A stretch of 57,298 bases of DNA from Symbiobacteriaceae bacterium (GTDB lineage: Bacteria > Bacillota > Sulfobacillia > Symbiobacteriales > Symbiobacteriaceae): assembly GCA_029239785.1 (NCBI GenBank), contig JARBUG010000040.1, positions 1 through 57,298 of the forward strand, in the 5' to 3' direction. A model generated the notes under the pieces. It was not told the origin of the DNA, did not search any database, and was given only the letters and a program-made list of their open reading frames with translations. A program made the position numbers and the translations under genes. Positions 23,720-45,447 of the stretch are shown piece after piece (the stretch's first letter is position 1; each line of letters opens with the position of its first letter).

Positions 23720-26700
23720 GTGGTGGAAGTTTGCCAGCGAATGGGGGGTATACCTGTGCTATTCGGTGAGGACCAGGTGCTCCGCGCCAAACTGCTTCCC
23801 CCGCGGCCGCGCCGGCACACCCTGGCGCGGTCTCGCCTGCACCTGAAGTTGCGCGAGTCCCTGGAAGTGCCGCTTACGGTTGTGCAGGCCGGGCCGGGTT
23901 ATGGCAAGACCACCGCACTGTGCAGCTTTTTGGCAGATCTGCCGTATCGCGTTGCCTGGTATTCGATTGCCGAGGGCGATGCAGACCCGCTGCCGTTTCT
24001 GCTGCATCTGATTTACGCGCTCCGGCTTCAGACGCCGCTTGTCGGTGAGAAGGCGCTGACCATTCTACAGGAAGGTGAAGGCCCCAACCGCCCTTGGCAT
24101 TTGGCCGTGGAGGCGCTGATCAACGACATCGTCTTCTCCAGTCAGCCGGAAATGCTGGTGGTGCTTGACGATTTTCATCTGGTTGATCAGGTGCCGGCCA
24201 TTCTGGCGATGGTGGAGCACCTGGTGGAACACATGCCGCCGCAGGTCCACCTGGTGGTGGCGAGCCGGCGGCGCCCTTCGCTGCCCAGCCTGCCCAAGTG
24301 GCGGGCCCGGGCCGAAGTGCTGGAACTGGGCGAGTCCGACCTGGTCTTCACGCCTGAGGAGGTCGAGGTGCTGTTCGCCGACCAGTACGGGGTCGACCTG
24401 AGCGACCAGCAGGCGACGCTGCTGGCGCGCCGGACCGAGGGCTGGATTATCGCCCTGCAGCTGATTTGGCAGAGCCTGCGCAAGGGCAGCACGCTGCGGC
24501 AGGTGTGGGAGCGGGGGCCGGACACGGTGGACGCGCTCTTTGCCTACCTGGCGCAGGAAGTGCTGGACCGGCAGAAGCCCTGGGTGCACCGGTTCTTGTT
24601 GACCACATGCGTGCTGGACCGGCTCGCGCCCGATGCCTGCGACGCCCTGGTGGGTGAGCCCGGTTCGGCGCAGGTGCTGGCCGCCCTGGAAGAGAACGGC
24701 CTGTTCATCCAGCACGTGGGCGGCGGAGCATACCGGTATCATCAGTTGTTCCACCAATTTCTGCGGGAACGGGCCGGGCGGGACAGCGAAACGTGGCGGG
24801 CGAACCACCTGACCGCCGCTCGGTATTTTGAGGCCGCCGCAGATTTGGAGGAAGCGGCGACGCATTACCTGGCGGCCGCAGACTTCGGGCGGGCCGCGGC
24901 CATTATTCATGATGCGGCGGCTTCCATGTTGGAGGCAGGCCGGGTGGAGGTGCTGGGCGGGCTGTTGGAGCGACTGCCGGCTGAGGCGTTTGCCCGGGAG
25001 CCCAAGCTGCTGCTGCGCCGCGGCGATGTCGACCGGCTAACCAGCAGGTTTCACACGGCGCTTGACTACTATCGCCGGGCCGCTGAGGGGTACCGGGCTG
25101 CGGGCGACCGCCAGGGGCTGTGCCTGGCCCTGCAGGGGCAGGCGCGCGTGTACCTGGATACGATTTCGCCTGGCGATGCCGAGGAACTGCTGCGTGAGGC
25201 GCTGCTGCTGGCCGATGTGCTGAGCGAGCGGGAGCGGGCGCAGTTGATGGCCCTGGTCGCCGAGAATGAGACCAACCGGGGGCGCCCCGATGACGCAGCC
25301 CGGTTTGCCAGCATGGCCGCCGCGCAAATGCCCCTGCGGGAAGACCTCGAGGTGCGGGCCGACCTGCGCACCGGGCGCCTGGCCGCTGCCATGGGCTCGC
25401 TGGAGCGGCAGGTTCGCCAGGGGCGGGCGGGCGCGAGCCATAGCCATCGGGAAGTGCCGCTGCTGATTTCGCTTTTGTCGGCGTTGCTGGGCGACCAGGA
25501 GCGGGCCGGCCGGGCCGCTGAGGAAGGGATTCAGACCGGCCGTGAGAAGCGCTCGCCCTTCGTGGAAGGGGTGGGCTTTATCCGCATGGGTCATGCCCTG
25601 CAGCTCAGTCCGCACAGCACGGTCGACGAAATCGCTGCGCAGTACAACCAGGCCATCGCCCTGATGGACAGCCTGGGCGTGGTGCGGGGCAAGTCCGAGC
25701 CCCTGGCCGGGCTGTGCATGCTCTACGGCCACCTGGCCGGCGACTGGGCCATGGCCCGGCGGTTTGGCACCGAGGGCGCCGACATTGCGGCCAAGGCCAG
25801 CGACCTCTGGTTCCACGGCTTCTGCCTGCTCAGCCTGGGGAGCAGCGCCCTGGTGTGCGGGCGCCCCGAGGCCGACCAGTACCTGGGGGAGGCGGAGGAG
25901 GCGTTCCTGGCCTCCGGCGATTCCCACGGGCTGGCGCTCGTCCGGCTCTGGAAGGCCAAGGCTGCCCGGCGGGCAGGCCACTGGGATGTGTTTGACGCCG
26001 CCATGGCCCAGGTGCTGAGCAGCACCCAGGCAAACGGTTATAGCTTTATCTTTACGAGGCGGACGCTGTACGGTCCCCGTGACCCGCAGGTGCTGATTCC
26101 GCTGCTCAGCGACGCCCAGAAGCGGGGCGTGAAGGCCGAGTATGCGGCCTGGCTCCTGGCCGAACTGGGCATTCCCAACGCCGAAAACCACCCCGGTTTC
26201 ACCCTGCGCCTGCGCACCCTGGGTACGTTCCAGGTGTGGCGTGGCCGCCACGAGGTGGCGCCCCGGGAGTGGCAGCGGGAAAAGGCCCGCCAGCTCATGC
26301 AGCTCTTCGTCACCAATCGCAAGCGCATGCTGCAGAAGGAGCAGATTATCGACCTGCTCTGGCCGGATGCTGACGGCGATACGGCCCACCGGGACTTCAA
26401 GGTCGCCTTGAATGCGCTCTGGAGCGCACTGGAGCCGCACCGGGCGGCGCGCTCGGGCTCGTTCTACATTCTGCGGCAGGGAACGGCTTACGGCCTCAAC
26501 CTGGCCTCCGGCTTCTGGCTGGATGCCGATGAGTTTGAGTCGCTGGTCTCCCGGGGGCTCGCCCTGGGCGCCCGGAGCCAGGATGCCGAGGCTGCTGCCC
26601 TGCTCCGCCAGGCGCTGGACCTGTACCAGGGCGATTTCCTGGAGGATGCGCCCTATGAGGACTGGTGCACCGAGGAGCGGGAGCGGCTTCAGGTTTTGTA

Positions 26701-26974
26701 TTTGCGTGCTGCCGAGTGGCTCGCCCAGCATGCGTCACGGGAAGATGATTTCGAGGGCTGCATCCGCCTGTGCGACCGGATTCTGGCCCGCGATCACTGC
26801 TGGGAAGAGGCCTACCGGCTCCTCATGTACAGCTACTTCCGCCTGGGGAACCGGCCCAAGGCCATGCGCATTTACGATAAGTGCGCCAGCTGCCTCCAGC
26901 AGGAGCTGGGCGTGAAGCCCATGCCGGGCACGCACCAGCTATACGAACGCATCCGCCGGAGCACCGACGTGTAA
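23720..26974 (+). CDS. MalT-like ATPase with C-terminal SARP/BTAD DNA-binding region
   Basis: The 1084-aa regulator starts with a STAND-type ATPase: Walker A AGPGYGKTT (57-65) and Walker B LVVLDDFHLVD (about 145-155). A long helical TPR-like region follows (about 350-800). An OmpR-like winged helix (from about 827; LRTLGTFQVWRGRHEV, EQIIDLLWPDA) and a BTAD domain (about 930-1080; ADEFESLV, GDFLEDAPYEDW) end the protein. The winged helix plus BTAD is the SARP module that activates promoters with 11-bp direct repeats. Starts at GTG 23720, ATG 23741 or GTG 23756 are possible; the last has GGGGGG at good spacing. Its stop lies inside a repeat promoter (26971). Confidence 0.88.
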   Translation: MVEVCQRMGGIPVLFGEDQVLRAKLLPPRPRRHTLARSRLHLKLRESLEVPLTVVQAGPGYGKTTALCSFLADLPYRVAWYSIAEGDADPLPFLLHLIYALRLQTPLVGEKALTILQEGEGPNRPWHLAVEALINDIVFSSQPEMLVVLDDFHLVDQVPAILAMVEHLVEHMPPQVHLVVASRRRPSLPSLPKWRARAEVLELGESDLVFTPEEVEVLFADQYGVDLSDQQATLLARRTEGWIIALQLIWQSLRKGSTLRQVWERGPDTVDALFAYLAQEVLDRQKPWVHRFLLTTCVLDRLAPDACDALVGEPGSAQVLAALEENGLFIQHVGGGAYRYHQLFHQFLRERAGRDSETWRANHLTAARYFEAAADLEEAATHYLAAADFGRAAAIIHDAAASMLEAGRVEVLGGLLERLPAEAFAREPKLLLRRGDVDRLTSRFHTALDYYRRAAEGYRAAGDRQGLCLALQGQARVYLDTISPGDAEELLREALLLADVLSERERAQLMALVAENETNRGRPDDAARFASMAAAQMPLREDLEVRADLRTGRLAAAMGSLERQVRQGRAGASHSHREVPLLISLLSALLGDQERAGRAAEEGIQTGREKRSPFVEGVGFIRMGHALQLSPHSTVDEIAAQYNQAIALMDSLGVVRGKSEPLAGLCMLYGHLAGDWAMARRFGTEGADIAAKASDLWFHGFCLLSLGSSALVCGRPEADQYLGEAEEAFLASGDSHGLALVRLWKAKAARRAGHWDVFDAAMAQVLSSTQANGYSFIFTRRTLYGPRDPQVLIPLLSDAQKRGVKAEYAAWLLAELGIPNAENHPGFTLRLRTLGTFQVWRGRHEVAPREWQREKARQLMQLFVTNRKRMLQKEQIIDLLWPDADGDTAHRDFKVALNALWSALEPHRAARSGSFYILRQGTAYGLNLASGFWLDADEFESLVSRGLALGARSQDAEAAALLRQALDLYQGDFLEDAPYEDWCTEERERLQVLYLRAAEWLAQHASREDDFEGCIRLCDRILARDHCWEEAYRLLMYSYFRLGNRPKAMRIYDKCASCLQQELGVKPMPGTHQLYERIRRSTDV

Positions 26975-27002
26975 CTCTTTTGTGACTGCGGATATCTACG
27001 AT
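26971..27002 (+). promoter_or_regulatory. SARP-type promoter 1 (two heptamers, 11-bp period)
   Basis: GTAACTC (26971) and GTGACTG (26982) are 11 bp apart. Exactly 8 bp later comes TACGAT (26997-27002) as the -10. No -35 consensus is present. The same geometry occurs at 30125 and 45405. Confidence 0.75.
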
Positions 27003-27038: not shown

Positions 27039-27746
27039 ATGCCGACAATCGAACTGGCCAATGGTCTTCCTATGTTCTACCGGGAGCAGGGCGCCGGCGA
27101 CCGGGTGGTGCTGCTGATTCACGGCAATTCCGCCTCGTCGCTCTGGTGGGAGCGGGTCATGGCGAATCTGCCCGCGGGCGTGCGGGCCGTGGCGCCCGAC
27201 CTGCGGGGCTGCGGCGACTCCGGGCATCCTGCCGAGCAGTGGTCGATGACCGATCTGGCGGAGGATATCTACCAGTTCACTTTGGCGCTCGGAATCGAGC
27301 GGGCGGTGGTCGTGGGTCATTCCCTGGGCGGCGGCGTGGCGCTGTACCTGACCGTGAACCATCCGACGCTTGTGGAGCGGTTGATGATTGTCAACTCGGC
27401 GCCGGCCGAGGGGCTGGTGACGCCGGCCGAGCGGTATCCGCAGTTGGAGATGGCGGTCAAGATGCCTGAAGTGCTGAAGATGGCCCTGGGCGCCATGATG
27501 CCTACGGCGCCCAAGGATGAGTACTACGCCCGGCTGCTGGAGGAGTCGCTGGCCAAGTCGGCTTCGGCCCTGATTCCCAACGGGCATGCGCTGGATCAGA
27601 TGAACCTGACGGAGCAGGCAATGATGGAGCGGACCCAGGCCACGATTCCCGGGTCGGTGCTGGAGGTTTGGCCTGAGGTCGGGCATTCGGCTCCGGTGGA
27701 GGACCCGGTCCGGTTTACCCGGCGCCTGGTCGAGTTTATGGGGTAG
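27039..27746 (+). CDS. Alpha/beta hydrolase lacking the catalytic-acid segment
   Basis: The 235-aa protein has the fold's start (VVLLIHGNSASSLWW), the nucleophile elbow VVGHSLGGG (S95), and the histidine loop WPEVGHSAPVEDP (H216). The segment that normally carries strand beta-7 and the catalytic Asp (type PTLVVWGxxD) should lie between about residues 190 and 196. Here MNLTEQ is joined directly to AMMERTQATIPG. About 25 residues seem missing in frame. GAGGAGGAG precedes ATG 27039. It is the first gene behind SARP-type promoter 1 and directly follows the regulator gene. Confidence 0.8.
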   Translation: MPTIELANGLPMFYREQGAGDRVVLLIHGNSASSLWWERVMANLPAGVRAVAPDLRGCGDSGHPAEQWSMTDLAEDIYQFTLALGIERAVVVGHSLGGGVALYLTVNHPTLVERLMIVNSAPAEGLVTPAERYPQLEMAVKMPEVLKMALGAMMPTAPKDEYYARLLEESLAKSASALIPNGHALDQMNLTEQAMMERTQATIPGSVLEVWPEVGHSAPVEDPVRFTRRLVEFMG

Positions 27747-27755: not shown

Positions 27756-27790
27756 GAGCCACAGCCTAGTGCTGTGGCTCTTTCGATTTT
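27756..27790 (+). terminator. Terminator after the alpha/beta hydrolase gene
   Basis: A perfect 10-bp stem GAGCCACAGC/GCTGTGGCTC (27756-27765 with 27771-27780), loop CTAGT, followed by TTTCGATTTT. Confidence 0.88.
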
Positions 27791-29809: not shown

Positions 29810-30080
29810 GGTTGCTTTCATTGGAGGCAGGGTTGCGTTCATTGGAGGCAGGGTTGCGTTCATTGGAGGCAGGGTTGCTTTCATTGACGGCAGGGTTGCT
29901 TTCATTGACGGCTGGGTTGCCTCCATTGGAGGGAGGGTTGCCTTCATTGGCGGCAGGGTTGCTTTCATTGGCGGCGGGTTGCCTCCATTGACGGCTGGGT
30001 TGCCTTCATTGGGAAATGGGTTCGCTTCATTGGCGGCTCGGTCGCCTCCATTGGAGGCTCGGTCGCCTTCATTGACGACC
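29810..30080. repeat. 21-bp minisatellite, about 13 tandem units
   Basis: Units of type GGGTTGCTTTCATTGGCGGCA follow each other without spacers; one unit is 20 bp. Units differ mainly at TTTC/GTTC/CTCC and GGAGG/GACGG/GGCGG. Because 21 is a multiple of 3 the tract stays open in several frames. On the minus strand it reads heptapeptides of type PMKATLP (frames within 29609-30103 and 29965-30204). None of these frames has a convincing ribosome site, so I do not call a gene. Confidence 0.9.
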
Positions 30081-30124: not shown

Positions 30125-30167
30125 GTAACTAACTTGTAACTGCCGAGCAACTCCTCACCCCTACCAT
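30125..30167 (+). promoter_or_regulatory. SARP-type promoter 2 (three heptamers, 11-bp period)
   Basis: GTAACTA (30125), GTAACTG (30136) and GCAACTC (30147) are each 11 bp apart. Exactly 8 bp after the last comes TACCAT (30162-30167). This promoter drives the KASIII-like gene and, by gene spacing, probably the transcription unit down to livF. Confidence 0.82.
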
Positions 30168-30203: not shown

Positions 30204-31232
30204 ATGACGACCGCCCGCCCGCACATCGGCGTGGTCAGCACCGGGATTTACATCCCCGATACCCACCACACCGCCGCTTACATCGCCCAAGAATCCGGCG
30301 TTCCCCTCGACGTTGTCGAGAAGAAGATGGGCATCACCCAAAAGCCCGTCCCCGGCCCCGAAGACGGCACCGCCGCCATGGGCATCAAGGCCGCTCAAAT
30401 GGCCGTCGCCCGCGCCGGCCTCGCCCCCACCGACATTGACCTCGTCATCTACATCGGCGAAGAGTACAAGGAATACCAACTCTGGACCGCCGGCATCAAA
30501 ACCGCCTACGAACTCGGCGCCACCGGCGCCTGGGCCTTCGACGTCCAGCTCCGCTGCGGCACCTGGGTCCTCGGCATGAAGCTCGCCGAAGCGCTCATGA
30601 TCAGTGACCCCGCCATCAACACGGTCCTCCTGGCCGGCGGCTACCGCAACGGCGACTTCATCGACTACAAGAACGCCCGGGTCAGCTTCATGTACAACCT
30701 CGGCGCCGGCGGCGGCGCCATGATCCTCAAGAAGAACTACGGCCGCAACCGCGTCATCGGCTCCGCCATGGTGGTTGACGGCTCCCTCTCCGAGACCGTC
30801 GGCGTTCTGGGCGGCGGCACCAAGGCCGGCCTCCACAACCACGACGACGCACTCTACCAGCTGGACGTGCTCGACCCCGTCACCATGAAGACCCGCCTCA
30901 ACGAGGTCTCCACGGCGAACTTTGTCAACTGCGTCAAGCGGGCCTGTGCCATCGAAGGCTACACCACCGCCGACATCAACTACTTCGCCATTCTTCATAT
31001 GAAGAAGTCCGGCCACGACGCCCTCCTCGCTGAACTCGGCGTCCCCGCCGACCGCTCCATCTACCTCAGCGACTACGGCCACATTGGCCAGTTCGACCAG
31101 ATTCTCTCCATTCACCTCGCCCTGGAGCAGGGCAAGATCAAGGACGGCGACCTCGTGGTCGGCGCCAGCGCCGGCGTCGGATACGCCTGGGGCGCCACCG
31201 CCATCAAATGGGGCCCGGTCGAGGAGGCCTAA
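30204..31232 (+). CDS. 3-oxoacyl-ACP synthase III-like condensing enzyme with Asn-to-His change
   Basis: The 342-aa protein has the thiolase-fold layout of KASIII/FabH: ESGVPLDVVEKKMGI near the start, the nucleophile Cys in QLRCGTW, a histidine at ILHMKKSGHD, and the terminal GYAWGATAIKWG. In FabH the third catalytic residue is Asn in YGNTSAAS; here the matching segment is DYGHIGQFDQ, a His. The enzyme may condense or transfer CoA-linked acyl groups rather than make fatty acids. GAGAGGTG precedes ATG 30204. The CoA-transferase gene follows after 6 nt. Confidence 0.82.
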   Translation: MTTARPHIGVVSTGIYIPDTHHTAAYIAQESGVPLDVVEKKMGITQKPVPGPEDGTAAMGIKAAQMAVARAGLAPTDIDLVIYIGEEYKEYQLWTAGIKTAYELGATGAWAFDVQLRCGTWVLGMKLAEALMISDPAINTVLLAGGYRNGDFIDYKNARVSFMYNLGAGGGAMILKKNYGRNRVIGSAMVVDGSLSETVGVLGGGTKAGLHNHDDALYQLDVLDPVTMKTRLNEVSTANFVNCVKRACAIEGYTTADINYFAILHMKKSGHDALLAELGVPADRSIYLSDYGHIGQFDQILSIHLALEQGKIKDGDLVVGASAGVGYAWGATAIKWGPVEEA

Positions 31233-31238: not shown

Positions 31239-32555
31239 ATGCAGACTGAAACCTGGCACGACATGTACCGCCGCAAGCTGACCTCCATCGATGAAGCGGT
31301 CGCCCAGGTCCCCGACCACGCCCAGATCGCCGTTGGCATGTGCTGCGCCGAGCCCCCCGGCCTGCTGAGCCGCCTGCACACCCTGCACGGCAAGCGGACC
31401 GACATTCGGGTCCTCGCCGCCCTGCTGATGCGCCAGTACGACTGGATCGCCAAGCCGGAGTACGCCGACACCTTCAAGCACGAAGCCTGGTTCTACGGCG
31501 ACGCCGCCCGGCAGGCTACCAAGGCCCACGGCCAGGTAACGGTGATTCCGAACAACCTGCACCGGGCCGGCAAGGACCGGTTCGAGGCGAAGCCTGTCAA
31601 CGTGCTCTTCCATACCGTCTCGCCCATGGATAAGCACGGCTACTTCTCGATGTCGCTCTCGACCTGCTACGAGCGGTGGGTGCTCGAAACCGCCGACCTC
31701 GTCATCGTCGAAGTGAACGAGAACACGCCCCGCACCTTCGGTGACACCATGCTCCACATCAGTCAGGTCAACTGGATTGTGGAGAACCACGTGCCCGTGG
31801 TGGAGTTCCCCAACATCACCCCCGGGCCCGAGGAGCAGGCAATCGCCGGCTACGTCGCCGACATGATCGAAAACGGCTCTACCATTCAGCTTGGCATCGG
31901 TGGCATTCCCAACGCCGTCGCCACCTTCCTGAAGGATAAGCGTGACCTCGGCGTCCACACCGAAATGGTCGTCGATGCGATGCTGGAACTCTACGAAGCC
32001 GGCGTCATCACCAACGCGCGCAAAACGCTCGACAGATACAAAACGGTAGGTTGCTTCGCCGCCGGCAGCCGCCGCCTCTACGACTGGCTGGACGATAACC
32101 CCGCCGTGGAGATTCGCGACGGCAACTACACCAACGACCCCTACAACATCGCCAAACAGCCGAAGATGGTCTCCATCAACACGGCTATTTCGGTCGACCT
32201 GACCGGCCAGGTCTGCTCCGAGTCCCTCGGGCCGGTGCAGTACAGCGGCACGGGCGGCCAGCGTGACACCCACGTCGGCTCCTGGATGAGCGAGGGCGGC
32301 AAGGGCATCATCTGCCTCCGCTCCACCGCCAAGGGCGGCACCGTTTCGACGATTACGCCCATGCTGGCGCCGGGCTCAATCGTCACCATGACCCGCAACG
32401 ACCTGGACTACGTCTGCACCGAGTATGGCGTGGCCCGCATGCGCGGCCTCTCCGCCCACGACCGGTGCGCCAATCTGATCAAGATCGCCCACCCGAACTT
32501 CCGCGACCAGCTCAAGGAAGAGGCGCAGAAGTACGGCTGGCTCCCCCGGAGGTGA
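31239..32555 (+). CDS. Acetyl-CoA hydrolase/transferase-family CoA-transferase (butyryl-CoA:acetate / 4-hydroxybutyrate type)
   Basis: The 438-aa protein belongs to the class I CoA-transferases that move CoA between short carboxylates through a glutamyl-CoA intermediate. The expected active-site Glu is in GVHTEMVVDAM, and the CoA-binding glycines are in LGIGGIPNAV. The C-terminal GGQRDTHVGSWMSEGGKGI is typical. It would activate an incoming acid or release one such as butyrate. It is closely spaced between the KASIII-like gene and a hydrolase. Confidence 0.88.
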   Translation: MQTETWHDMYRRKLTSIDEAVAQVPDHAQIAVGMCCAEPPGLLSRLHTLHGKRTDIRVLAALLMRQYDWIAKPEYADTFKHEAWFYGDAARQATKAHGQVTVIPNNLHRAGKDRFEAKPVNVLFHTVSPMDKHGYFSMSLSTCYERWVLETADLVIVEVNENTPRTFGDTMLHISQVNWIVENHVPVVEFPNITPGPEEQAIAGYVADMIENGSTIQLGIGGIPNAVATFLKDKRDLGVHTEMVVDAMLELYEAGVITNARKTLDRYKTVGCFAAGSRRLYDWLDDNPAVEIRDGNYTNDPYNIAKQPKMVSINTAISVDLTGQVCSESLGPVQYSGTGGQRDTHVGSWMSEGGKGIICLRSTAKGGTVSTITPMLAPGSIVTMTRNDLDYVCTEYGVARMRGLSAHDRCANLIKIAHPNFRDQLKEEAQKYGWLPRR

Positions 32556-32560
32556 GGCGC

Positions 32561-33337
32561 ATGAACCTGCACTACCGCTGGCAGGGCAAGGAAGATGGCC
32601 CGGTCCTGGTGCTGATCAACGGGCTGCTGACTGACCTGTCCAGTTGGAACGGACACTTGCCGGCCTACACCGACCACTTCCGGGTGCTGACCTATGATTG
32701 CCGGGGGCAGGGTCAGAGCGACAAGCCCGAGGAAGGTCCCTACACACCGGAGCAGCACGCCGAAGACCTTCACAACCTCCTAACGCAACTCAACCTGACC
32801 AACGTCGCACTCCTCGGTGTGAGCAACGGCGCCTGCATCGCGCTTCAGTTTGCCGCCAGATGGCCCGAGCGGGTCACCGCCCTGGTGCTGGCCAACGGCT
32901 ACGGCCGGGCCGACACCGCCCTCAAGGTCAAGCTGACCAGCTGGCTGAACGGCATGGAAGCCGGCGGCGGTCCCCTCCGCTTCGATATCTCCAGCCCCTG
33001 GATCTGGGGCGCCTCGTACCTCAACAAGCACTACGAAGCGCTCAAGCCCTGGCGGGAGAAGGGGTCCGCCCTCCCCGTCTACGCCGTTCGCCATTTGATC
33101 GCCGGCGGCATGGAGCACGACGTGCTCGACCTTGCCGCCAACATTACCTGCCCCACACTCCTCCTCACCGGCGATGAAGATGTGCTTACGCCCGTCAGCT
33201 ACAGCCACGACCTGCAGCGCCGGATCATCGGCAGCCAGATCGTCATGCTGCGGGAAGCGGGTCACTGCATGTTCCTGGAACAGCCGGCCCAGTTCACGCA
33301 GGCGGCTGCACAGTTCCTGACCCGGAATCTGCTGTAA
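32561..33337 (+). CDS. Alpha/beta hydrolase
   Basis: The 258-aa protein shows a full triad: nucleophile in LLGVSNGACIA, acid in LLLTGDEDVLTP, and histidine in EAGHCMFLEQP. The oxyanion region is LVLINGLLTDLSSW. This is the usual form of 3-oxoadipate-enol-lactonase-like or thioesterase-like hydrolases; the substrate is unknown. GGAGGTGAGG precedes ATG 32561, 5 nt after the CoA-transferase stop. Contrast it with the hydrolase at 27039, which has lost its acid segment. Confidence 0.85.
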   Translation: MNLHYRWQGKEDGPVLVLINGLLTDLSSWNGHLPAYTDHFRVLTYDCRGQGQSDKPEEGPYTPEQHAEDLHNLLTQLNLTNVALLGVSNGACIALQFAARWPERVTALVLANGYGRADTALKVKLTSWLNGMEAGGGPLRFDISSPWIWGASYLNKHYEALKPWREKGSALPVYAVRHLIAGGMEHDVLDLAANITCPTLLLTGDEDVLTPVSYSHDLQRRIIGSQIVMLREAGHCMFLEQPAQFTQAAAQFLTRNLL

Positions 33338-33351: not shown

Positions 33352-33540
33352 GTGGGAGAGCCTCTAATCGCATCATTCGTCGTTCGGATTTACGCCGACG
33401 CCGAGACGGCAGCCGACCAGGGCCCCTGGCGGGTGACCGTACGCCACGTCCAGTCCGACGAGGAACGCCAGTTCACCAGCCTCGAGGACGCCGCAACATT
33501 CATGCAGCAGTTTGCGAAGGAGGTACCTGTTCGTGGATAA
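33352..33540 (+). CDS. Small protein of unknown function
   Basis: The 62-aa frame starts with GTG after GGGGGAGAG and overlaps the start of the SDR gene by 8 nt, so it is likely translated and coupled. It is acidic, with a beta-strand-like start (LIASFVVRIYADAE) and a middle RVTVRHVQSDEERQFTSLED. It lies between a hydrolase and a reductase in an acyl-CoA operon. I do not recognise a family. Confidence 0.7.
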   Translation: MGEPLIASFVVRIYADAETAADQGPWRVTVRHVQSDEERQFTSLEDAATFMQQFAKEVPVRG

Positions 33541-34273
33541 GGAACTGCAGGGCAAAGTAGCGCTCATTACCGGCTCCGCCCGAGGCCTGGGCAAGGCGAT
33601 CGCCATCGAGCTAGCCACCAAGGGCGCCGATATCATCATCAACGACATCCCGCCCATGGCGGAAGTGGCCGAACAGACCGTCGCCGAACTCAAGGCGATG
33701 GGCGTAAACGCCAAGTTCTACCCCGGCTTTGTCAACAACGAGGAAGATGTGAACCGCATGGCCGCCGAAGTGGGCCAGGTCGACATTCTCGTCAACAACG
33801 CCGGTATCAACCGTGACGGCCACATGCGCAAGTCGAACAAGCCCGACTGGGACGCCGTCATCGACGTCAACCTGACCGGCCCGTTCCTCTGCAGCAAGGC
33901 GTTTGTGCCGCTCATGGCCGCCCGCGGCTGGGGCCGCATCATCAACATTTCGAGCTACGTCGGCCGCACGGGCGTGTTCGGCACCCCGTACTACGCCGCT
34001 TCCAAGGCCGGTCTGATCGGCCTGACCAAGGAAGTTGCCATCGAGTTCGCCAAGAAGGGCGTGACCGTGAACGCTCTCGCCCCGGGCTACATCCTGACCG
34101 AGATGATGCTGAAGTACCCGCAGGAGTACCAGGACAGCATTACGGCCAAGATTCCCTGCGGCTACTGGGCCAAGCCCGAAGACATCGCCTACTGGGCCGG
34201 TGTCTGCGCCTCGCCCCGTGCTCACTACATGACCGGTGCCGTCATTGATTGCAACGGCGGCTGGTATATGTAA
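33533..34273 (+). CDS. Short-chain dehydrogenase/reductase (FabG/PhaB-like 3-oxoacyl reductase)
   Basis: The 246-aa SDR has the NADP(H)-binding TGSARGLGKAIA, the NNAGI motif (ILVNNAGINRDG), the catalytic Ser in NISSYVG, and YYAASKAG with Tyr and Lys. The FGTPYYAASKAGLIGLTKEVA stretch resembles FabG and acetoacetyl-CoA reductase PhaB, which yield (R)-3-hydroxyacyl thioesters. The GTG start 33533 has AAGGAGG at good spacing. With the thiolase and the MaoC hydratase of this window it could form an (R)-specific C4 pathway. Confidence 0.9.
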   Translation: MDKELQGKVALITGSARGLGKAIAIELATKGADIIINDIPPMAEVAEQTVAELKAMGVNAKFYPGFVNNEEDVNRMAAEVGQVDILVNNAGINRDGHMRKSNKPDWDAVIDVNLTGPFLCSKAFVPLMAARGWGRIINISSYVGRTGVFGTPYYAASKAGLIGLTKEVAIEFAKKGVTVNALAPGYILTEMMLKYPQEYQDSITAKIPCGYWAKPEDIAYWAGVCASPRAHYMTGAVIDCNGGWYM

Positions 34274-34314
34274 GTAAGGTTCCGATTCACAAGTTCTTTA
34301 AGGGGGATACCAGG

Positions 34315-35592
34315 GTGAAACGCTTCATGGCAGGACTGCTCTCGCTCGTCATGGTTGCTGGCCTCGCCGCCGGTTGCTCCGAGCCCGCCAAGGACACCAC
34401 GAAGGCGCCGGATACCGCACCGGCCGCTACCACTCCCGCTGACCAGCCCAAGAAGGTTGAAGTTCCCGGCGTCACCGACACCACCGTCAAGGTTGGCGGC
34501 TTTGCCGCCCAGTCCGGTGGCGTCGCCCCGATCGGCATTTCGGTCCGCAAGGGCTTCGAAGCCTACATCAAGTACGTCAACGACGCCGGTGGCGTCCATG
34601 GCCGCAAGATCGAGATCGTGAAGGTCGTCGACGACGAGTTCACCGCCGCCAAGGCCCTCGCCGCTTCCAAGGAACTGGTCGAGTCCGACAAGGTCTTCGC
34701 CATGGCGCCCGTGCTGGGCACCCCGGGCGTGCAGGCTTCCATGGACTACTGGGTCGAGCAGAACATTCCCGTCGTCTACCCGATGACCGGCATTGAGCAG
34801 ACCGCCCACCCGGCCAAGAAGAACGTCTTCGCCGTTCAGCCCAACAACTACGACGAGGCGAAGATCCTGACCCAGTACGCCATCCAGGACCTGGGCAAGA
34901 AGAAGGTCGCCGTGCTCTGGCAGAACACCGACATGGGCAAGCAGGGCCTGAAGGGCGTTCAGGACCAGGTCAAGGCTTCGGGCGGCGAACTGGTTTATGA
35001 AGCTGCCCACGAACTGAAGGCCGTTGACTTCGCCACCCCGGTGCTGAACGCCAAGGCCAAGGGTGCCGAGGCCGTCATTCTCTACACCACGATTGCCGAG
35101 AGCGTCGGCATCATGAAGGAGATGCAGAAGCAGGGCCTGACCGCCGTGCCCCTGACCTCCTACGTCAACGCTGACCCGGTTAACCTGCCCAAGCTGGCTG
35201 GCGACGCCGCTGTTGGCCTGATCACCGGCGGATGGGTGCCCGTGGCCGATCCCAACAGCCCTGACATCAAGAAGTTCAACGAAGTCTACGGCAAGTACAT
35301 CATCGGCGCCGACGGCAAGCCCGAGGCTCCCAACGCCTACTCCACCGCCGGCTGGATCGCCGCCGAGCTGCTGGTCAAGGGCCTGCAGGACGCCGGCAAG
35401 GACCTCACCCGTGAGAAGTTCGTCGCCGCTCTTGAAGCCCTGAAGAACTGGAACGGCATCATGGCCAAGGACATCTCCTACGGCCCTGGCGACCGTCGCG
35501 GTTCCACCGCCTTCTACCTGAACAAGGTCGAGAAGAAGGACGGCAACATCGTGATGCTGCCGATCAACACGCAGCCGTACCGCCTGAAGTAG
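34315..35592 (+). CDS. Branched-chain amino acid-type ABC transporter, substrate-binding lipoprotein
   Basis: The 425-aa protein has a lipoprotein signal (VKRFMAGLLSLVMVAGLAAG followed by the lipobox Cys). A linker rich in Ala, Thr and Pro follows, then a type I periplasmic-binding (LivJ-like) domain: KVGGFAAQSGGVAPIG, KGFEAYIKYVNDAGGVHGR. In a Gram-positive cell it is anchored outside the membrane and feeds LivHMGF. Family members bind branched-chain amino acids, amides, urea or aromatic acids, so the ligand cannot be read from sequence. The GTG start at 34315 has AAGGGGG upstream. Confidence 0.92.
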   Translation: MKRFMAGLLSLVMVAGLAAGCSEPAKDTTKAPDTAPAATTPADQPKKVEVPGVTDTTVKVGGFAAQSGGVAPIGISVRKGFEAYIKYVNDAGGVHGRKIEIVKVVDDEFTAAKALAASKELVESDKVFAMAPVLGTPGVQASMDYWVEQNIPVVYPMTGIEQTAHPAKKNVFAVQPNNYDEAKILTQYAIQDLGKKKVAVLWQNTDMGKQGLKGVQDQVKASGGELVYEAAHELKAVDFATPVLNAKAKGAEAVILYTTIAESVGIMKEMQKQGLTAVPLTSYVNADPVNLPKLAGDAAVGLITGGWVPVADPNSPDIKKFNEVYGKYIIGADGKPEAPNAYSTAGWIAAELLVKGLQDAGKDLTREKFVAALEALKNWNGIMAKDISYGPGDRRGSTAFYLNKVEKKDGNIVMLPINTQPYRLK

Positions 35593-35604
35593 TACCCGGA
35601 GGCA

Positions 35605-35629
35605 GGGGGGAGGAGCAGTTCCTCCCCCC
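35605..35629 (+). terminator. GC hairpin after the binding-protein gene
   Basis: GGGGGGAGGA (35605-35614) pairs with TCCTCCCCCC (35620-35629), without a T-tract. Such hairpins often stabilise the upstream mRNA so that more binding protein than permease is made. Confidence 0.6.
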
Positions 35630-35652
35630 GTGCTCCTAGGAGGGCATATCGC

Positions 35653-36522
35653 ATGATTTTGGCCCAGCAGATCATCAGCGGTCTGGCGACCGGCTCCCTC
35701 TACGCCCTGGCCGCCCTGGGTCTCGTACTGATCTTCAAAACGTCCGACGTGGTGAACTTCGCCCAGGGCGAAATGGCCATGTTCGGCACGTTTGTCGCCT
35801 TTACACTTCTCACCTCTGTCGGTCTTCCTTTCTGGGGCGCCTTCCTGCTGGCGCTGATCTTCGCCGCGATCTTTGGCGCCGGTATTGAGCGGATCGTGCT
35901 GCGGCCCTTGGCCAAGGCGCCGCTCATTAGCGTGATGATCGCCACGCTCGGCCTCTTCCAGATCATCAACGGTGTCGCCGGCTGGATCTGGGGCTACGAG
36001 TTGCAGCCGTTCCCCACCGCATTAAGCGGTGCGCCGATCACCGTTGCTGGTATCGTGTTCACCATGCAGAACCTGATGAACATCGGCGTGGCTATGGTGA
36101 TCATGTTCGGGTTCTTCCTGCTCTTCAAGTTCTCCATCCTTGGTGTCGCCATGCGGGCCGTGGCTGAGAACCGCACGGCTGCCAAGCTGATGGGCGTTCC
36201 CACCGACCGGATCCTGGCCCTTACGTGGGGCCTGGGCGGCATCCTGGCAGCTACCGCCGGCATTCTTACCGCCCCGGTCACTAACCTTGACATCAACTTT
36301 ATGGCCACCCTGCAGATCAAGGCCTTCACCGCCGGCGTGCTGGGCGGGTTCACCTCGCTGCCGGGCGCCGTAATTGGCGGCCTCGCCCTGGGCGTGCTGG
36401 AGAACCTGGTGGGACAGTGGAACTCCCAGCTCCAGACCCCCTTTGCCTTCGGGTTGATCGTCCTGGTACTTGTCATTCGCCCTGCCGGCCTGCTCGGCAC
36501 CATCCAGAAGAAGAAGGTGTAG
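35653..36522 (+). CDS. livH: Branched-chain amino acid-type ABC permease LivH
   Basis: The 289-aa permease has about eight hydrophobic helices and the family signatures NFAQGEMAMFGTFVAF near the start and FTAGVLGGFTSLPGAVIGG near the end. It forms the membrane channel with LivM. CTAGGAGGG precedes ATG 35653. It is 4 nt from livM. Confidence 0.95.
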   Translation: MILAQQIISGLATGSLYALAALGLVLIFKTSDVVNFAQGEMAMFGTFVAFTLLTSVGLPFWGAFLLALIFAAIFGAGIERIVLRPLAKAPLISVMIATLGLFQIINGVAGWIWGYELQPFPTALSGAPITVAGIVFTMQNLMNIGVAMVIMFGFFLLFKFSILGVAMRAVAENRTAAKLMGVPTDRILALTWGLGGILAATAGILTAPVTNLDINFMATLQIKAFTAGVLGGFTSLPGAVIGGLALGVLENLVGQWNSQLQTPFAFGLIVLVLVIRPAGLLGTIQKKKV

Positions 36523-36525
36523 CCC

Positions 36526-37533
36526 ATGGTCAAGAAACTGCCGGCCCTGGTAGGACTTGCGGTCTTGCTGGTGCTGCCCCAGGTGCTGGGAGCCGAGTAT
36601 TCCTGGCTCGTCCTGCTGCTCAACCGGGCCCTGATTTTCGCCATCATGGCGATCGGCCTCAACCTGCTGACGGGCTTTGCCGGTCAGATCTCTATCGGTC
36701 ACGCAGCTTTCATGGCTGTGGGCGCGTTTACCTCGTACGGCCTGGGCAAGTTCGTAGGCATTCCGTTCTGGGGCGCCCTGCCCATCGCCGGTCTGGCGGC
36801 CGGCCTGGTCGGATACGCCCTGGGCTTCCCGGCCCTGCGCCTGTCGGGCCATTACCTGGCCATCGCGACCCTGGGCTTCGGCGTGGCTGTGCCTCAGGTG
36901 CTGAACCTCTGGGAGTCGCTGACCGGCGGCTGGACGGGCGTCAAGCCTGCGGCGCCGTACCTGCTCGGCATCTCCTTCCGGGAGGATCGGCCCTTCTACT
37001 ACCTGATCCTCATTGCCCTATTCATCATGGCCGGGTTGGCAGTCAACCTCATCAAAAGCCGCACCGGGCGTGCCTTTATCGCCCTGCGTGACAGCGAGGT
37101 GGCGGCCCAGGCCATGGGTATCAGTCTGACCAAGTACAAGACCCAGGCCTTCGCCCTGTCGGCCTTCTACGCCGGCATTGGCGGCAGCCTGTACGCCCAC
37201 ATGATCAACTATATTTCGCCCCACGACTTTGGCAGCGGCATCTCCATGGAACTGTTCACGATCATTTGCCTGGGCGGCTTAGCCTCGGTCAACGGCTCAA
37301 TCGTGGGCGCCATCTTCATGTCGTTCCTGCCCAAGCTGACGGAGCGGATTTCGCTGGTCATCCAGAAGTCCGGCGCCTTTGAGCACTCGCACTTCCTGCA
37401 GAACGTCTTCAAGAACTTCAACCAGGTGCTTACGGGCATCATTCTGATTCTGGTCGTGCTCTATCTGCCCATGGGTCTTGTGGACCTGTGGCGGAAGACG
37501 AAAAACCTCTTCACAGCCAAGGGGGTGAAGTAG
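36526..37533 (+). CDS. livM: Branched-chain amino acid-type ABC permease LivM
   Basis: The 335-aa permease carries LivM signatures: GFAGQISIGHAAFMAVGAF in the first part and the EAA-like FALSAFYAGIGGSLYAH and FTIICLGGLASVNGSIVGA in the last part. It has about ten hydrophobic segments. It starts 4 nt after livH and is followed 2 nt later by livG. Confidence 0.95.
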   Translation: MVKKLPALVGLAVLLVLPQVLGAEYSWLVLLLNRALIFAIMAIGLNLLTGFAGQISIGHAAFMAVGAFTSYGLGKFVGIPFWGALPIAGLAAGLVGYALGFPALRLSGHYLAIATLGFGVAVPQVLNLWESLTGGWTGVKPAAPYLLGISFREDRPFYYLILIALFIMAGLAVNLIKSRTGRAFIALRDSEVAAQAMGISLTKYKTQAFALSAFYAGIGGSLYAHMINYISPHDFGSGISMELFTIICLGGLASVNGSIVGAIFMSFLPKLTERISLVIQKSGAFEHSHFLQNVFKNFNQVLTGIILILVVLYLPMGLVDLWRKTKNLFTAKGVK

Positions 37534-37534
37534 T

Positions 37535-38312
37535 ATGGCAATCCTTGAACTGAAAGGCGTTACCGTCCGCTTTGGCGGCCTGGTGGCTGTCAACGCGCTC
37601 GACCTGTCGGTGGAGCAGGGGTCGATTCATGGCTTGATCGGGCCGAACGGCGCCGGCAAGTCGACCGTGTTCAACGTGCTGAGCCGTTACTACGATCCCG
37701 CCGAAGGCACGGCCACGTTTGAGGGCAAGGACCTGCTCGGCGCCCAGCCCCACGACGTGATCAACCGGGGCATCGCCCGCACGTTCCAGAACGTTGAGCT
37801 TTTCAAGGGCCTTTCCGTCATGGATAACCTGATGGTCGGGCAGCACCACAACTTCAGGTACGGCCTGCTGCCGGCCCTGCTGTCTCGCATATTGCCTTCC
37901 GTCAAGCGGGAGGAGGCCGAAAAGCGGGCCAAGGCGCTGGAAGTGCTGGAGTTCCTGGGCATCGCCGCCTATAAGGATGCGTTCCCCGCCTTCTTGCCCT
38001 ACGGCATTCAGAAGCGGGTCGAGTTCGCCCGTGCGCTGGTCAGCCAGCCCAAGCTGATTCTGCTGGACGAGCCCGCCGCGGGCATGAACGAGCAGGAGAC
38101 GCACGATCTGGCGCAGCTAATCCGCATCATGCGCGACAAGTACAAGACCACCGTGCTGCTGGTCGAGCATGACATGTCGCTGGTCATGTCGATCTGCGAG
38201 CATATCACCGTAATGGAGTTCGGCCGAAAGATCGCCGACGGCACCCCGGCCGAAGTCCAGAACAACCCCGCCGTCATTAAGGCCTACCTCGGCGAGGAGG
38301 AGGAGGCCGCCA

Positions 38313-38320
<8 letters not shown>
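37535..38320 (+). CDS. livG: Branched-chain amino acid-type ABC ATPase LivG
   Basis: The 261-aa ATPase has Walker A GPNGAGKSTVF, and Walker B LILLDEPAAGMN with the LivG-type MNEQE. The signature region is degenerate: YGIQKRVEFARAL stands where LSYGxQRRLEIARAL is usual. It energises LivHM together with LivF. Its stop overlaps the livF start by 8 nt. Confidence 0.95.
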
Positions 38321-39017
<697 letters not shown>

Positions 39018-42582: not shown

Positions 42583-42615
42583 AAAAGGAAAGGACCAGGG
42601 AGAACTCCCTGGTCC
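42583..42615 (-). terminator. Terminator of the MerR-family gene
   Basis: A perfect 10-bp stem GGACCAGGGA/TCCCTGGTCC (42592-42601 with 42606-42615) is followed in the minus direction by TTTCCTTTT. Confidence 0.88.
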
Positions 42616-42631
42616 GTACGCACGCATCAGA

Positions 42632-43381: not shown

Positions 43382-43402
43382 TGTGATCACCTCCACGTCT
43401 TT

Positions 43403-43433
43403 ACCCTAAACTATCACGTTACGTGAGGGTCAA
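43403..43433 (-). promoter_or_regulatory. MerR-type promoter/operator of the TipA-like gene
   Basis: On the minus strand: TTGACC (43433-43428), a 19-bp spacer, and TAGGGT (43408-43403). The spacer holds the palindrome TCACGT-T-ACGTGA (43414-43426). Long 19-bp spacers with a central dyad are the hallmark of MerR-family control. Confidence 0.75.
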
Positions 43434-43444
43434 CACCTTTTGCG

Positions 43445-43483
43445 AAAAAAAGTTCGAGCCCCCGGGTGTGCCGGGGGCTCGAA
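43445..43483 (-). terminator. Terminator of S9 peptidase 2
   Basis: An 11-bp stem TTCGAGCCCCC/GGGGGCTCGAA (43453-43463 with 43473-43483) is followed in the minus direction by CTTTTTTT. Confidence 0.92.
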
Positions 43484-43490
43484 TCGCGGA

Positions 43491-45305
43491 TTAACCCTTC
43501 AGATGCTTCAGCAGGAAATCGCTCATTAGCTTGTAGCCCTTCAGTTGGTTCGTCCGCTTCGTAAAGCCGTGGCCTTCATCTTCAAAGACCAGATACTCCA
43601 CCTGGCGGCCCAGTTCGCGCAGCCGCTCGACCATCATATCGGACTCTGCCTTCACGACCCGCGGGTCCGTGGCGCCCTGCACCACCATCATCGGGCATTT
43701 GATGTTGTCGACGTATGTGATCGGCGACCGCTCCATCAAGAACTCCCGGTCTTCGTCCGGGTCGCCCATCCAGGCCTTGATCATGGGCTTCCAGTGCGGC
43801 GGCACGCTCTTGCCGAAGGTGACCAGGTTGGCCGGCCCGCAGAAATCGCAGGCGCAGGCCCAGTAATCGGGCAGGCGGGTGGCGCAGGTGAGCGTGGCGA
43901 AGCCGCCGTAGCTGCCGCCCCATACTGCGAGCTTGCTGGCGTCGACCCATTCCAGCGACTGTAGGTACTTGGCGCACGACTCCATGTCCTTCATGTCGTC
44001 GCCGCCCCAGTCGCGGTGAATCTTCAACTGATAGCTGATGCCAAAGCCCGTGCTGCCCCGAATGTTCGGCGCCAGCACCGCCACGCCCTGGCTCAGCAGG
44101 TACTGGTAGAAGCCGTTGTAGCGGTACTCCGTGCGCTCCTGGGTCTCCGGGCCGCCATGAATGGAAAGGACCGCCGGTACCTTCTCGCCGGGCTGAACGC
44201 CCTGCGGCCGATAGAGCCATGCCGGAATCTTGAGGCCATCGAACGCCTCGATATGGACCAGCTCGGGCGCCACAAAGACTTCGGCGGGCAGGTTGCCCAG
44301 CATCGACGGGGTGAGCAGCCGCAGTTCGGTGCGGTCGAGGTCGACCACGTACACGGCGTTCATCTGGTTGTAGCAGTTCATGGAGACGAACAGACGCCGC
44401 TGCTCATCCTGCCCGGCGAACTTCATCTGCGAAATAACGCCCTTGGGCATCGCCGGAAGGGCCACTTCCTGGCCGCTCTCGGTGTCGATTAGCACGAGCC
44501 GGCTGTTGCCCGCCTCGTTGATGCTGTATGCGATTAGCTTGCCGCCGCAGCCGACGGCCATGTCCTCGAGGTCCCAGTCTGACGTGATGATGTAGTTCTG
44601 CTTGTCAGCCTCGAGATCGTAGAGGCCGATGGCCAGATGCTCGCGGCCATCGTTGCTGAAGAAGTAGAAGGCCTTGCCATCTTTCCGCCACGAGTACGGG
44701 TAGTGCATAGCCTCACGCCCGGGGTGCGCCGTAAGGTTCCGGGCGTTACCCGTGGCCACGTCAATCAGCCACATGTCCTGGTTGGTGTTGCCCATGATCT
44801 GGACCGCCAGCATGTGCGTGCCGTCCGGTGAGAAGCTGGCGAAATCCATGAGGCGCCCGCCTTCGGTGATCTGGCGGACTTCGCCGGTTTGCAGGTCACG
44901 CAGGTAGATGTCGGTATCCCGTGCCACTGTGGCGTTGCCTGAGTAGGCCAGGTACCGCCCGTCAGGCGAGAAGCTACCCAACGAGTACTGCACATCGGGT
45001 CGGTTGGTGATCTGTTCCGGCCAGCCGCCCTGGGCATCCATGAGGTAAATCTGGTACATTTCGTTGCCGTTCACGTCGGCCAGGAATGCGATTTTACTGT
45101 GGTCTTTCGAAACGGTTGCCTGGCGGACGCTCTCGTTCGTGAAGAGCGTCAGCTGCTCAGGCCAGCCGCCCTCGGTCGGAACACGCCACAGGTTCAACTG
45201 CCCGCTGATGTCGGCCGTGAAGTAGACCGAGTTGCCGTCGGGCGCCGGCACGAAGCTGCCGATGCGTCGGGTTGCTGCAAACTGCTCGAACTTGTACTGG
45301 CTCAC
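43491..45305 (-). CDS. S9-family peptidase 2, paralogue of 40681-42495
   Basis: The 604-aa protein has the same propeller-plus-hydrolase layout as peptidase 1: nucleophile GGSYGGFA, acid QGATDPRV, histidine EGHGFTKRTNQ, and the same start SQYKFEQFAATRRI. I chose GTG 45305 with GAGAGGAG upstream. The frame stays open for 820 more codons, but only because it runs antisense through the thiolase and dehydrogenase genes. Two equal-length paralogues with a MerR gene between them suggest duplication. Confidence 0.92.
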   Translation of the reverse strand: MSQYKFEQFAATRRIGSFVPAPDGNSVYFTADISGQLNLWRVPTEGGWPEQLTLFTNESVRQATVSKDHSKIAFLADVNGNEMYQIYLMDAQGGWPEQITNRPDVQYSLGSFSPDGRYLAYSGNATVARDTDIYLRDLQTGEVRQITEGGRLMDFASFSPDGTHMLAVQIMGNTNQDMWLIDVATGNARNLTAHPGREAMHYPYSWRKDGKAFYFFSNDGREHLAIGLYDLEADKQNYIITSDWDLEDMAVGCGGKLIAYSINEAGNSRLVLIDTESGQEVALPAMPKGVISQMKFAGQDEQRRLFVSMNCYNQMNAVYVVDLDRTELRLLTPSMLGNLPAEVFVAPELVHIEAFDGLKIPAWLYRPQGVQPGEKVPAVLSIHGGPETQERTEYRYNGFYQYLLSQGVAVLAPNIRGSTGFGISYQLKIHRDWGGDDMKDMESCAKYLQSLEWVDASKLAVWGGSYGGFATLTCATRLPDYWACACDFCGPANLVTFGKSVPPHWKPMIKAWMGDPDEDREFLMERSPITYVDNIKCPMMVVQGATDPRVVKAESDMMVERLRELGRQVEYLVFEDEGHGFTKRTNQLKGYKLMSDFLLKHLKG

Positions 45306-45404
45306 CTGATTCGCTCCTCTCGTGACCGGAATCACATACCCTTTCGTTCTCTCACTATAGATACCCTTGTGCATATTCGGAGCACGGCAGAAAAAGCACG
45401 GTCG

Positions 45405-45447
45405 GTAACCGTGGTGTAACTGGTGCGCAACTGTACAGGCATAGCAT
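45405..45447 (+). promoter_or_regulatory. SARP-type promoter 3 (three heptamers, 11-bp period)
   Basis: GTAACCG (45405), GTAACTG (45416) and GCAACTG (45427) are each 11 bp apart. Exactly 8 bp later comes TAGCAT (45442-45447). It drives the thiolase gene and probably the dehydrogenase/EtfBA-FixCX/MaoC genes. Confidence 0.82.

What the first reader, a model, noticed from the sequence alone, without database searches (positions are those of the whole stretch)
23720..45447. A probable SARP-type regulon: three promoters with 11-bp heptamer repeats placed exactly 8 bp from the -10, with the regulator gene next door
Seen: heptamers GTAACTC/GTGACTG (26971, 26982) then TACGAT at 26997; GTAACTA/GTAACTG/GCAACTC (30125, 30136, 30147) then TACCAT at 30162; GTAACCG/GTAACTG/GCAACTG (45405, 45416, 45427) then TAGCAT at 45442. 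In all three the period is 11 bp, the gap to the -10 is 8 bp, and no -35 is present. Established: SARP regulators (ActII-ORF4, DnrI, AfsR) activate Streptomyces promoters with 11-bp direct repeats 8 bp from the -10. The 1084-aa protein at 23720 ends in winged helix plus BTAD, the SARP module. Inference: it activates the hydrolase, the KASIII/CoA-transferase-to-livF genes and the thiolase-to-MaoC genes as one regulon in a Firmicute, an unusual setting because SARPs are best known from actinomycetes. It is also unusual that the regulator's stop codon lies inside the first box.
Basis: partly seen in the sequence, partly recalled or inferred. Interest (0 to 1): 0.92.

Follow-up and report, generated by a model that had tools for sequence, protein, structure and literature searches.

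The report
SARP-type switch controlling catabolic genes
A probable Firmicute carries a regulator that joins a MalT-like sensor to the DNA-binding module of Streptomyces antibiotic regulators, and three nearby catabolic gene groups carry matching repeat-plus-promoter sites that are kept in related genomes with the same regulator, so a mechanism known from antibiotic control probably runs metabolism here.

Summary
In 2.07 Mb of held sequence (about 20% of this genome plus parts of relatives) the strict pattern has 6 hits, all before regulon genes in genomes that have the regulator, and none at 62 other period/gap settings. The regulator is a MalT-type NTPase protein ending in winged helix plus BTAD. 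Paired boxes lie before KASIII in 5 of 5 genomes with the regulator and in 0 of 7 without it, though those 7 are also more distant. The hydrolase site is kept in 3 of 3 relatives with that orthologue. The thiolase, inside the KASIII cluster in two relatives, stands apart in the window but carries its own three-box site. I judge this a real SARP-type regulon, unusual in domain order, phylum and catabolic targets. Binding, inducer and transcription starts are untested. A wider claim, that other SARPs of the class use this geometry with other heptamers, has leads (including a urocanase locus) but found nothing in 15 further neighbourhoods.

The parts
23720..26974 (+). regulator, 1084 aa: MalT-type NTPase (Walker A GPGYGKTT, Walker B VVLDDFH), TPR-like middle, C-terminal winged helix + BTAD
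   Evidence: BTAD PF03704 res. 934-1079, E 1.7e-28; NCBIfam MalT PRK04841.1 res. 21-528, E 5.7e-72, below its curated cut-off; Walker residues invariant in 5 aligned proteins except the P of GPG
26198..26962 (+). SARP module (residues 827-1081) inside the regulator
   Evidence: AfsR 8hvr E 6.6e-12; NCBIfam AfsR model matches residues 827-1081, E 3.2e-11, far below its cut-off; profile of 16 relatives vs AfsR 1.1e-34, EmbR 7.4e-29
26971..26988 (+). operator 1: two heptamers GTAACTC / GTGACTG, period 11
   Evidence: equivalent two-box site before the hydrolase orthologue in G001, G003, G004
26997..27002 (+). -10-like hexamer TACGAT of operator 1
27039..27746 (+). alpha/beta hydrolase, target 1 (start codon chosen by me; the mechanical frame begins at 26982)
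   Evidence: Pfam Abhydrolase_1 E 7.3e-25; a 10-pair terminator-like stem follows at 27756-27780
30125..30153 (+). operator 2: three heptamers GTAACTA / GTAACTG / GCAACTC, period 11
   Evidence: three-box site before KASIII in G001, G003, G004; two-box site before the KASIII cluster in G025
30162..30167 (+). -10-like hexamer TACCAT of operator 2
30204..31232 (+). KASIII-type 3-oxoacyl synthase, first gene of target group 2
   Evidence: Pfam ACP_syn_III; NCBIfam PRK06840 480.9 bits, over its cut-off of 315
31239..32555 (+). acetyl-CoA hydrolase/CoA-transferase
   Evidence: Pfam AcetylCoA_hyd_C E 1.3e-61
32465..33337 (+). second alpha/beta hydrolase (mechanical start overlaps the gene before)
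   Evidence: Pfam Abhydrolase_1 E 9.1e-25
33512..34273 (+). short-chain dehydrogenase
   Evidence: Pfam adh_short E 3.4e-56
34249..39017 (+). LivK-H-M-G-F type uptake system (34249-35592, 35653-36522, 36526-37533, 37535-38320, 38313-39017)
   Evidence: Pfam Peripla_BP_6, BPD_transp_2 twice, ABC_tran twice
45405..45433 (+). operator 3: three heptamers GTAACCG / GTAACTG / GCAACTG, period 11
45442..45447 (+). -10-like hexamer TAGCAT of operator 3
45483..46661 (+). thiolase, first gene of target group 3
   Evidence: Pfam Thiolase_N E 2e-106; its best match in G001 and G003 lies in the KASIII cluster
46761..51646 (+). acyl-CoA dehydrogenase, EtfB, EtfA, FixC-like, FixX-like ferredoxin, MaoC-like hydratase (46761-47897, 47911-48666, 48683-49636, 49652-50944, 50944-51228, 51248-51646)

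Best explanation
The 1084-aa protein is a ligand- and nucleotide-controlled transcription activator. Its MalT-like NTPase and TPR parts sense an inducer, probably the imported substrate or a CoA-linked intermediate. Its C-terminal SARP module binds side by side on two or three GTAACTG-like heptamers spaced one helical turn apart, ending 8 bp before a weak -10 at a promoter with no -35. There it would hold sigma region 4 and RNA polymerase, as AfsR does. It switches on a hydrolase gene, a KASIII/CoA-transferase/hydrolase/dehydrogenase/LivKHMGF group and a thiolase/acyl-CoA dehydrogenase/ETF/FixCX/MaoC group as one catabolic regulon. Shown here: the sites, the geometry, the domain content, and the conservation in genomes that have the regulator. 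Inferred: binding, activation, dimer or trimer on DNA, the inducer, and the operon limits.
For: (1) Specificity: 6 strict hits in 2.07 Mb, all at regulon sites, 0 at 62 other period/gap settings; a relaxed pattern gives 14 hits at 11/8, of which 11 are at regulon sites, against 0-5 at the other settings. (2) Conservation: the hydrolase site is present in 3 of 3 relatives with that orthologue (G001, G003, G004) and the KASIII site in 4 of 4 (G001, G003, G004, G025), with exact 11/8 spacing although the letters differ. (3) Linkage to the regulator: of 154 class genomes 12 have a close KASIII homologue; the 5 with the regulator have paired boxes, the 7 without it have none in the loci held. (4) Rearrangement: the thiolase lies inside the KASIII cluster in G001 and G003; in the window it lies about 15 kb from KASIII with its own three-box site. 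(5) The protein is SARP-like over winged helix and BTAD. (6) Published SARP rules match: repeats of 11 or 22 bp, the 3' repeat 8 bp from the -10, poor -35 (PMC10936776, passages); three heptamers with 4-bp spacers for PimR (PMC5930380, passages). (7) The regulon sites stand before the homology-supported start of their gene.
Against: No binding or expression data exist. The order NTPase-TPR-SARP is the reverse of AfsR and SARP-LALs. Of six AfsR DNA-contact residues named as conserved in PMC10936776 (section 7 read), my mapping on the alignment keeps Q48 and W74 in the window protein and changes P79, T88, R94 and K95 (to G, V, W, S). The -10 hexamers at the hydrolase site of G001, G003 and G004 are poor (GACAAT, CATCAT, AACAAT). 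In G004 the regulator (C70, cut at the contig end) and its sites (C131) are on different contigs. The 7 control genomes without the regulator have KASIII homologues of only 45-51% identity, against 57-75% in the 4 relatives with it, so distance and regulator are confounded; one of their loci (L144) holds only about 530 bases before the gene. G004 and G025 show no close thiolase orthologue (best 52-54%), so the thiolase argument rests on two relatives of one genus. 3 of 14 relaxed hits are off the regulon. In one search the G004 hydrolase site falls inside a mechanical 315-aa frame that is the hydrolase frame with an earlier start. The structure model of the SARP part, from one sequence, was poor (mean pLDDT 58.1) and was not used.
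Confidence: 0.85

Rival explanations
1. The repeats are sites of another OmpR-type regulator (for example a PhoP-like response regulator, whose boxes are also 11-bp direct repeats; recalled), and the SARP gene is beside them by chance.
For: OmpR-type winged helices share the direct-repeat habit (recalled); a TTAACCA/TTAACAA pair with 11/8 geometry precedes a gene in G000 C234 that I read by eye as a PiT-type phosphate transporter, which looks Pho-like.
Against: Paired GTAAC-type boxes lie before KASIII in 5 of 5 genomes with the SARP and in 0 of 7 without it; the targets are not phosphate genes; the 8-bp gap to the -10 is the SARP rule.
Confidence: 0.1
2. The repeats are chance or low-complexity resemblance in GC-rich intergenic DNA.
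For: Generic heptamer repeats (any letters) do not stand out clearly at 11/8: 26 against 17-19 at neighbouring gaps, 4 against 1-7 in the further set, 15 against 13 at gap 9.
Against: The GTAAC-type strict pattern is confined to 11/8 and to these genes in the held sequence and is conserved beside proteins that are only 39-62% identical to the window's.
Confidence: 0.02
3. The sites are real SARP operators but this regulator does not act on all three units; for example the hydrolase is partly read through from the regulator gene and the thiolase group answers to a SARP paralogue.
For: 13 further matches to the regulator exist in this genome, four of them over its SARP end; none of the six terminator-like stems listed lies between regulator and hydrolase.
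Against: The three sites share one heptamer consensus; the window's contig holds only this one match; the two-box hydrolase site is conserved in 3 of 3 relatives with the orthologue.
Confidence: 0.12

Closest known systems
AfsR (large SARP, Streptomyces coelicolor)
   Same: winged helix + BTAD, nucleotide-binding domain and TPR in one chain; 11-bp direct repeats ending 8 bp before the -10 at promoters with a poor -35
   Different: SARP part at the C-terminus instead of the N-terminus; four of six named AfsR DNA-contact residues changed; heptamer GTAACTG-like; catabolic targets; outside actinomycetes
SARP-LAL regulators (PimR, SanG, PolR)
   Same: SARP joined to a large ATP-binding part; three heptamers with 4-bp spacers (PimR)
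   Different: domain order reversed; PimR heptamer is CGGCAAG and its main operator does not overlap the -35 box; targets are antibiotic genes
MalT / LAL activators
   Same: N-terminal NTPase of the MalT type (NCBIfam PRK04841.1, residues 21-528) and TPR-like region; DNA-binding part at the C-terminus
   Different: [quoted passage not shown] the score is below the MalT equivalog cut-off
EmbR (Mycobacterium)
   Same: winged helix + BTAD; profile match E 7.4e-29
   Different: has an FHA domain (per PMC10936776) instead of NTPase and TPR

Membership tests
SARP family | winged helix (OmpR type) followed by BTAD | tested here: met
   BTAD E 1.7e-28 over the whole model; AfsR over both domains E 6.6e-12, profile 1.1e-34
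SARP family | target promoters with direct repeats at 11 (or 22) bp, 3' repeat 8 bp from the -10 | tested here: met
   rule taken from PMC10936776; the -10 itself is only proposed
SARP family | poor or absent -35 | tested here: met
   no listed sigma-70-type pair overlaps the three sites
SARP family (large SARP / SARP-LAL) | SARP domain at the N-terminus | tested here: not met
   SARP module at residues 827-1081 of 1084
SARP family | AfsR-type DNA-contact residues (Q48, W74, P79, T88, R94, K95) | tested here: inconclusive
   2 of 6 kept in the window protein by my mapping on the alignment; residue list
SARP family | binds the repeats and activates transcription | not testable with these tools
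   needs footprinting, gel shift or expression data
MalT/LAL family | MalT-type NTPase | tested here: met
   PRK04841.1 residues 21-528, E 5.7e-72, 243 bits against a cut-off of 537; Walker motif residues invariant in 5 aligned proteins
MalT/LAL family | C-terminal LuxR-type helix-turn-helix | tested here: not met
   no such Pfam match at E 0.001; the C-terminus is SARP

The most novel reading that the evidence does not exclude
In this class of Bacillota, SARP modules joined to sensor NTPases form a family of catabolic switches, each reading its own heptamer with the fixed 11/8 geometry. Examples are the KASIII/Liv regulon here (regulator NTPase-TPR-SARP) and, in G026, a SARP gene of AfsR-like order (BTAD, AAA, TPR) with two such sites, one before urocanase (histidine use) and one between the SARP gene and a Gate-domain gene. 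The antibiotic role in Streptomyces would then be one branch of an older metabolic regulator family.
Probability: 0.45. Interest if true: 0.75.

Novelty: new variant of a known kind. Interest (0 to 1): 0.62.

Why it matters
SARPs are best known as antibiotic switches of actinomycetes. A conserved SARP regulon for uptake and acyl-CoA catabolism in Bacillota, with the module placed at the other end of a MalT-type sensor, would show that the DNA-side mechanism (side-by-side binding on repeats, helping sigma at a -35-less promoter) is portable across phyla and sensors. It offers relatives in which inducer, site and activation could be tested in a simple catabolic setting, and it helps to predict operons in a poorly studied class.

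Tried and rejected
Generalisation of the motif. A broader core ([GT][TC][AG]AC[TG] twice, 11/8, TANNNT) gave 12 hits at 11/8 and 0-1 at the other settings tried (gaps 2-15 at period 11, periods 7-16 at gap 8) in 1.47 Mb. The core was widened after I had seen most of those sites; only the two L164 hits were unseen before. On a further set of 20 stretches (15 new BTAD neighbourhoods and 5 smaller pieces) it gave 0 hits, and generic heptamer repeats were not enriched at gap 8 there (4, against 1-7 at other gaps). The generic triple-repeat scan over 1.75 Mb did not stand out at 11/8 (15, against 13 at gap 9 and 17 at period 9, at its middle threshold). I therefore keep the class-wide claim as a lead only.

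Structure: one fold of the SARP part from a single sequence, mean pLDDT 58.1; too weak, so no fold search was made.

Substrate: the genes (KASIII, CoA-transferase, two hydrolases, dehydrogenases, thiolase, ETF, Liv uptake) fit uptake and beta-oxidation-like breakdown of a carboxylic acid, but no family hit names the substrate.

Print: searches (listings only) showed no paper on a SARP operator or regulon in Bacillota; the library is open-access papers only. Of the papers cited I saw passages of PMC10936776 and its section 7, passages of PMC5930380 and passages of PMC10972967.

Full report
Observation. The pattern GYRACY twice at period 11, then TANNAT 8 bp after the last heptamer, has 3 hits in the 57,298-base window and none in 100 dinucleotide shuffles. 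No listed sigma-70-like -35/-10 pair overlaps the sites.

The regulator. P0001 (23720-26974) carries BTAD at residues 934-1079 (E 1.7e-28). Its last 274 residues match AfsR over both winged helix and BTAD (8hvr, E 6.6e-12). A profile of 16 sequences of this class, the window's included (A2), matches AfsR at 1.1e-34 and EmbR at 7.4e-29. The first half matches the MalT model (residues 21-528, E 5.7e-72, below the equivalog cut-off), with Walker residues invariant in five aligned proteins. The order NTPase-TPR-SARP is the reverse of AfsR and of SARP-LALs (PMC10936776 passages; PMC10972967 passages).

Relatives. Among the own genome and 60 relatives and 154 genomes of the class, orthologues occur in G001 and G003 (62% identity), G004 (63%, cut by a contig end) and G025 (40%, another family). 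G004's contig C70 has the same length (21,302) as the contig of L015, a named record 'MAG: Bacillota bacterium isolate Bin_10'; this is the only named evidence for the phylum.

Footprint. Before the hydrolase orthologue: G001 GTGACTC CCGT GTAACAG, 8 bp, GACAAT; G003 GTGACTG CCGT GTAACAC, 8 bp, CATCAT; G004 GTAACTC ATTT GCAACTG, 8 bp, AACAAT. Before KASIII: G001 GTGACTC CCGT GTAACAG CCCG GTGACTC, 8 bp, TACGTT; G003 GTAACTC CCGT GTGACAG CACG GTTACTC, 8 bp, TAGGTT; G004 GTAACCC GTGT GTAACTG CCGC GCAACTC, 8 bp, TAGCAT; G025 GTAACTG GAAG GCAACTT, 8 bp, TATGAT, with a 91-codon frame between site and KASIII. G025 has a second site (GTAACTG GGAT GCAACTG, 8 bp, TAAGAT) before a periplasmic binding protein, a hydrolase and the regulator itself, which points to autoregulation there. 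Within the family the hydrolase has two boxes and KASIII three, while the letters vary.

Specificity. In 2,066,719 held bases (120 stretches: about 1.09 Mb of this genome, the rest from relatives) the strict pattern has 6 hits: three in the window, one in G004, two in G025, all regulon sites. At the other 62 combinations of period 8-14 and gap 4-12 it has 0. A relaxed pattern has 14 hits at 11/8, 11 of them regulon sites and 3 elsewhere (window minus strand 21705, L109 1445, L168 16040); other combinations give 0 to 5.

Linkage to the regulator. Of 154 class genomes, 12 have a KASIII homologue at E <= 1e-85. The five that also have the regulator (E <= 1e-60) show paired boxes before KASIII; the seven without it show none in their 3-4 kb loci (L144 holds only about 530 bases before the gene). 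The seven KASIII homologues are 45-51% identical to the window's, those of the four relatives with the regulator 57-75%, so part of this contrast may be distance.

Regulon logic. In G001 and G003 the order is regulator, hydrolase, KASIII, second hydrolase, dehydrogenase, thiolase, LivK-H-M-G-F; the CoA-transferase was found in the G004 and G025 clusters but not in those of G001 and G003. In the window the thiolase (73-74% identical to theirs) is about 15 kb from KASIII at the head of a group of acyl-CoA dehydrogenase, EtfB, EtfA, FixC-like, FixX-like and MaoC-like genes, and this head carries its own three-box site. A gene that stands in the cluster in relatives and apart here, yet has its own site, speaks for one regulon. 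G004 and G025 have no close thiolase orthologue.

How it likely works. In AfsR two SARP protomers sit side by side on two 11-bp repeats and contact sigma region 4 at a promoter with a poor -35 (PMC10936776). PimR uses three heptamers with 4-bp spacers (PMC5930380). The window sites match both plans. By my mapping on the alignment, the base-reading residues of AfsR (T88, R92) are V and A here, which fits a different heptamer. The four aligned regulators with GTAACTG-like boxes (window, G001, G003, G025) share the helix [RK]VALN[ANS]L. The MalT-like part would gate activity by an inducer; this step is inference.

Wider leads. Sites of the same geometry with other heptamers stand near other SARP genes: G025 C35 (L063 15885, TTAACGC twice, about 93 bp after a C-terminal SARP gene); G051 (L157 13180, about 2.2 kb after the SARP gene); G017 (L159 10715, before a 3043-aa open frame whose first 600 residues hold SLH and Ig-like domains); G032 (L154 3864, about 300 bp after a 725-aa frame with the SARP match); and G026 (L164 15230 before urocanase; L164 9957, one base after the SARP stop codon and before a Gate-domain gene). 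None of these lies inside a same-strand frame of 150 aa or more (the other strand was not checked), and for L154 and L157 the next frame is short, 88-147 aa. Against this, 15 further SARP neighbourhoods gave no hit with that core and no enrichment of generic repeats, so the generalisation is not established. 22 of 154 class genomes have a BTAD match at E <= 1e-20, so such regulators are not rare in this class.

Verdict. A real SARP-type regulon, in my judgement, with unusual domain order, host and targets: a new variant of a known kind. Print searches (listings only) showed no earlier description in Bacillota within this open-access library.

Noticed in passing
window 29810-30077: A tandem array of a 21-bp unit (12.7 copies, 83% match) ends about 50 bp before operator 2.
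   Followed up: no
L164 (G026) 8531-15230, minus strand: Urocanase gene, a SARP gene of AfsR-like order and a Gate-domain gene with two 11/8 repeat sites, one before urocanase and one just after the SARP stop codon: a candidate SARP-controlled histidine-utilisation locus.
   Followed up: partly
L216 (G002 C754) minus strand 5107 and 2753: Two triple repeats of TTGAGTG-like heptamers with 11/8 geometry and the same TAGGCT hexamer (one flagged as a tandem repeat by my script), on the strand of a SARP-like match of the same contig.
   Followed up: no
L052 18763, minus strand (G003 C7): TAACGWC repeats with 11/8 geometry at the 5' end of a SARP paralogue but on the opposite strand, before a 47-codon open frame that by eye encodes a small secreted peptide; the site also lies inside a mechanical 403-aa frame.
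   Followed up: no
L138 4175 (G000 C234): TTAACCA/TTAACAA pair with 11/8 geometry before a gene that by eye looks like a PiT phosphate transporter; perhaps a Pho-type box.
   Followed up: no
window 45397-45413, minus strand: A terminator-like stem on the minus strand overlaps the first box of operator 3.
   Followed up: no
G000 C231 (L109), about 119-5762: A second thiolase (67% identity) and a weak SARP-like match lie within 6 kb of each other; no strict site there, one relaxed hit at 1445.
   Followed up: partly
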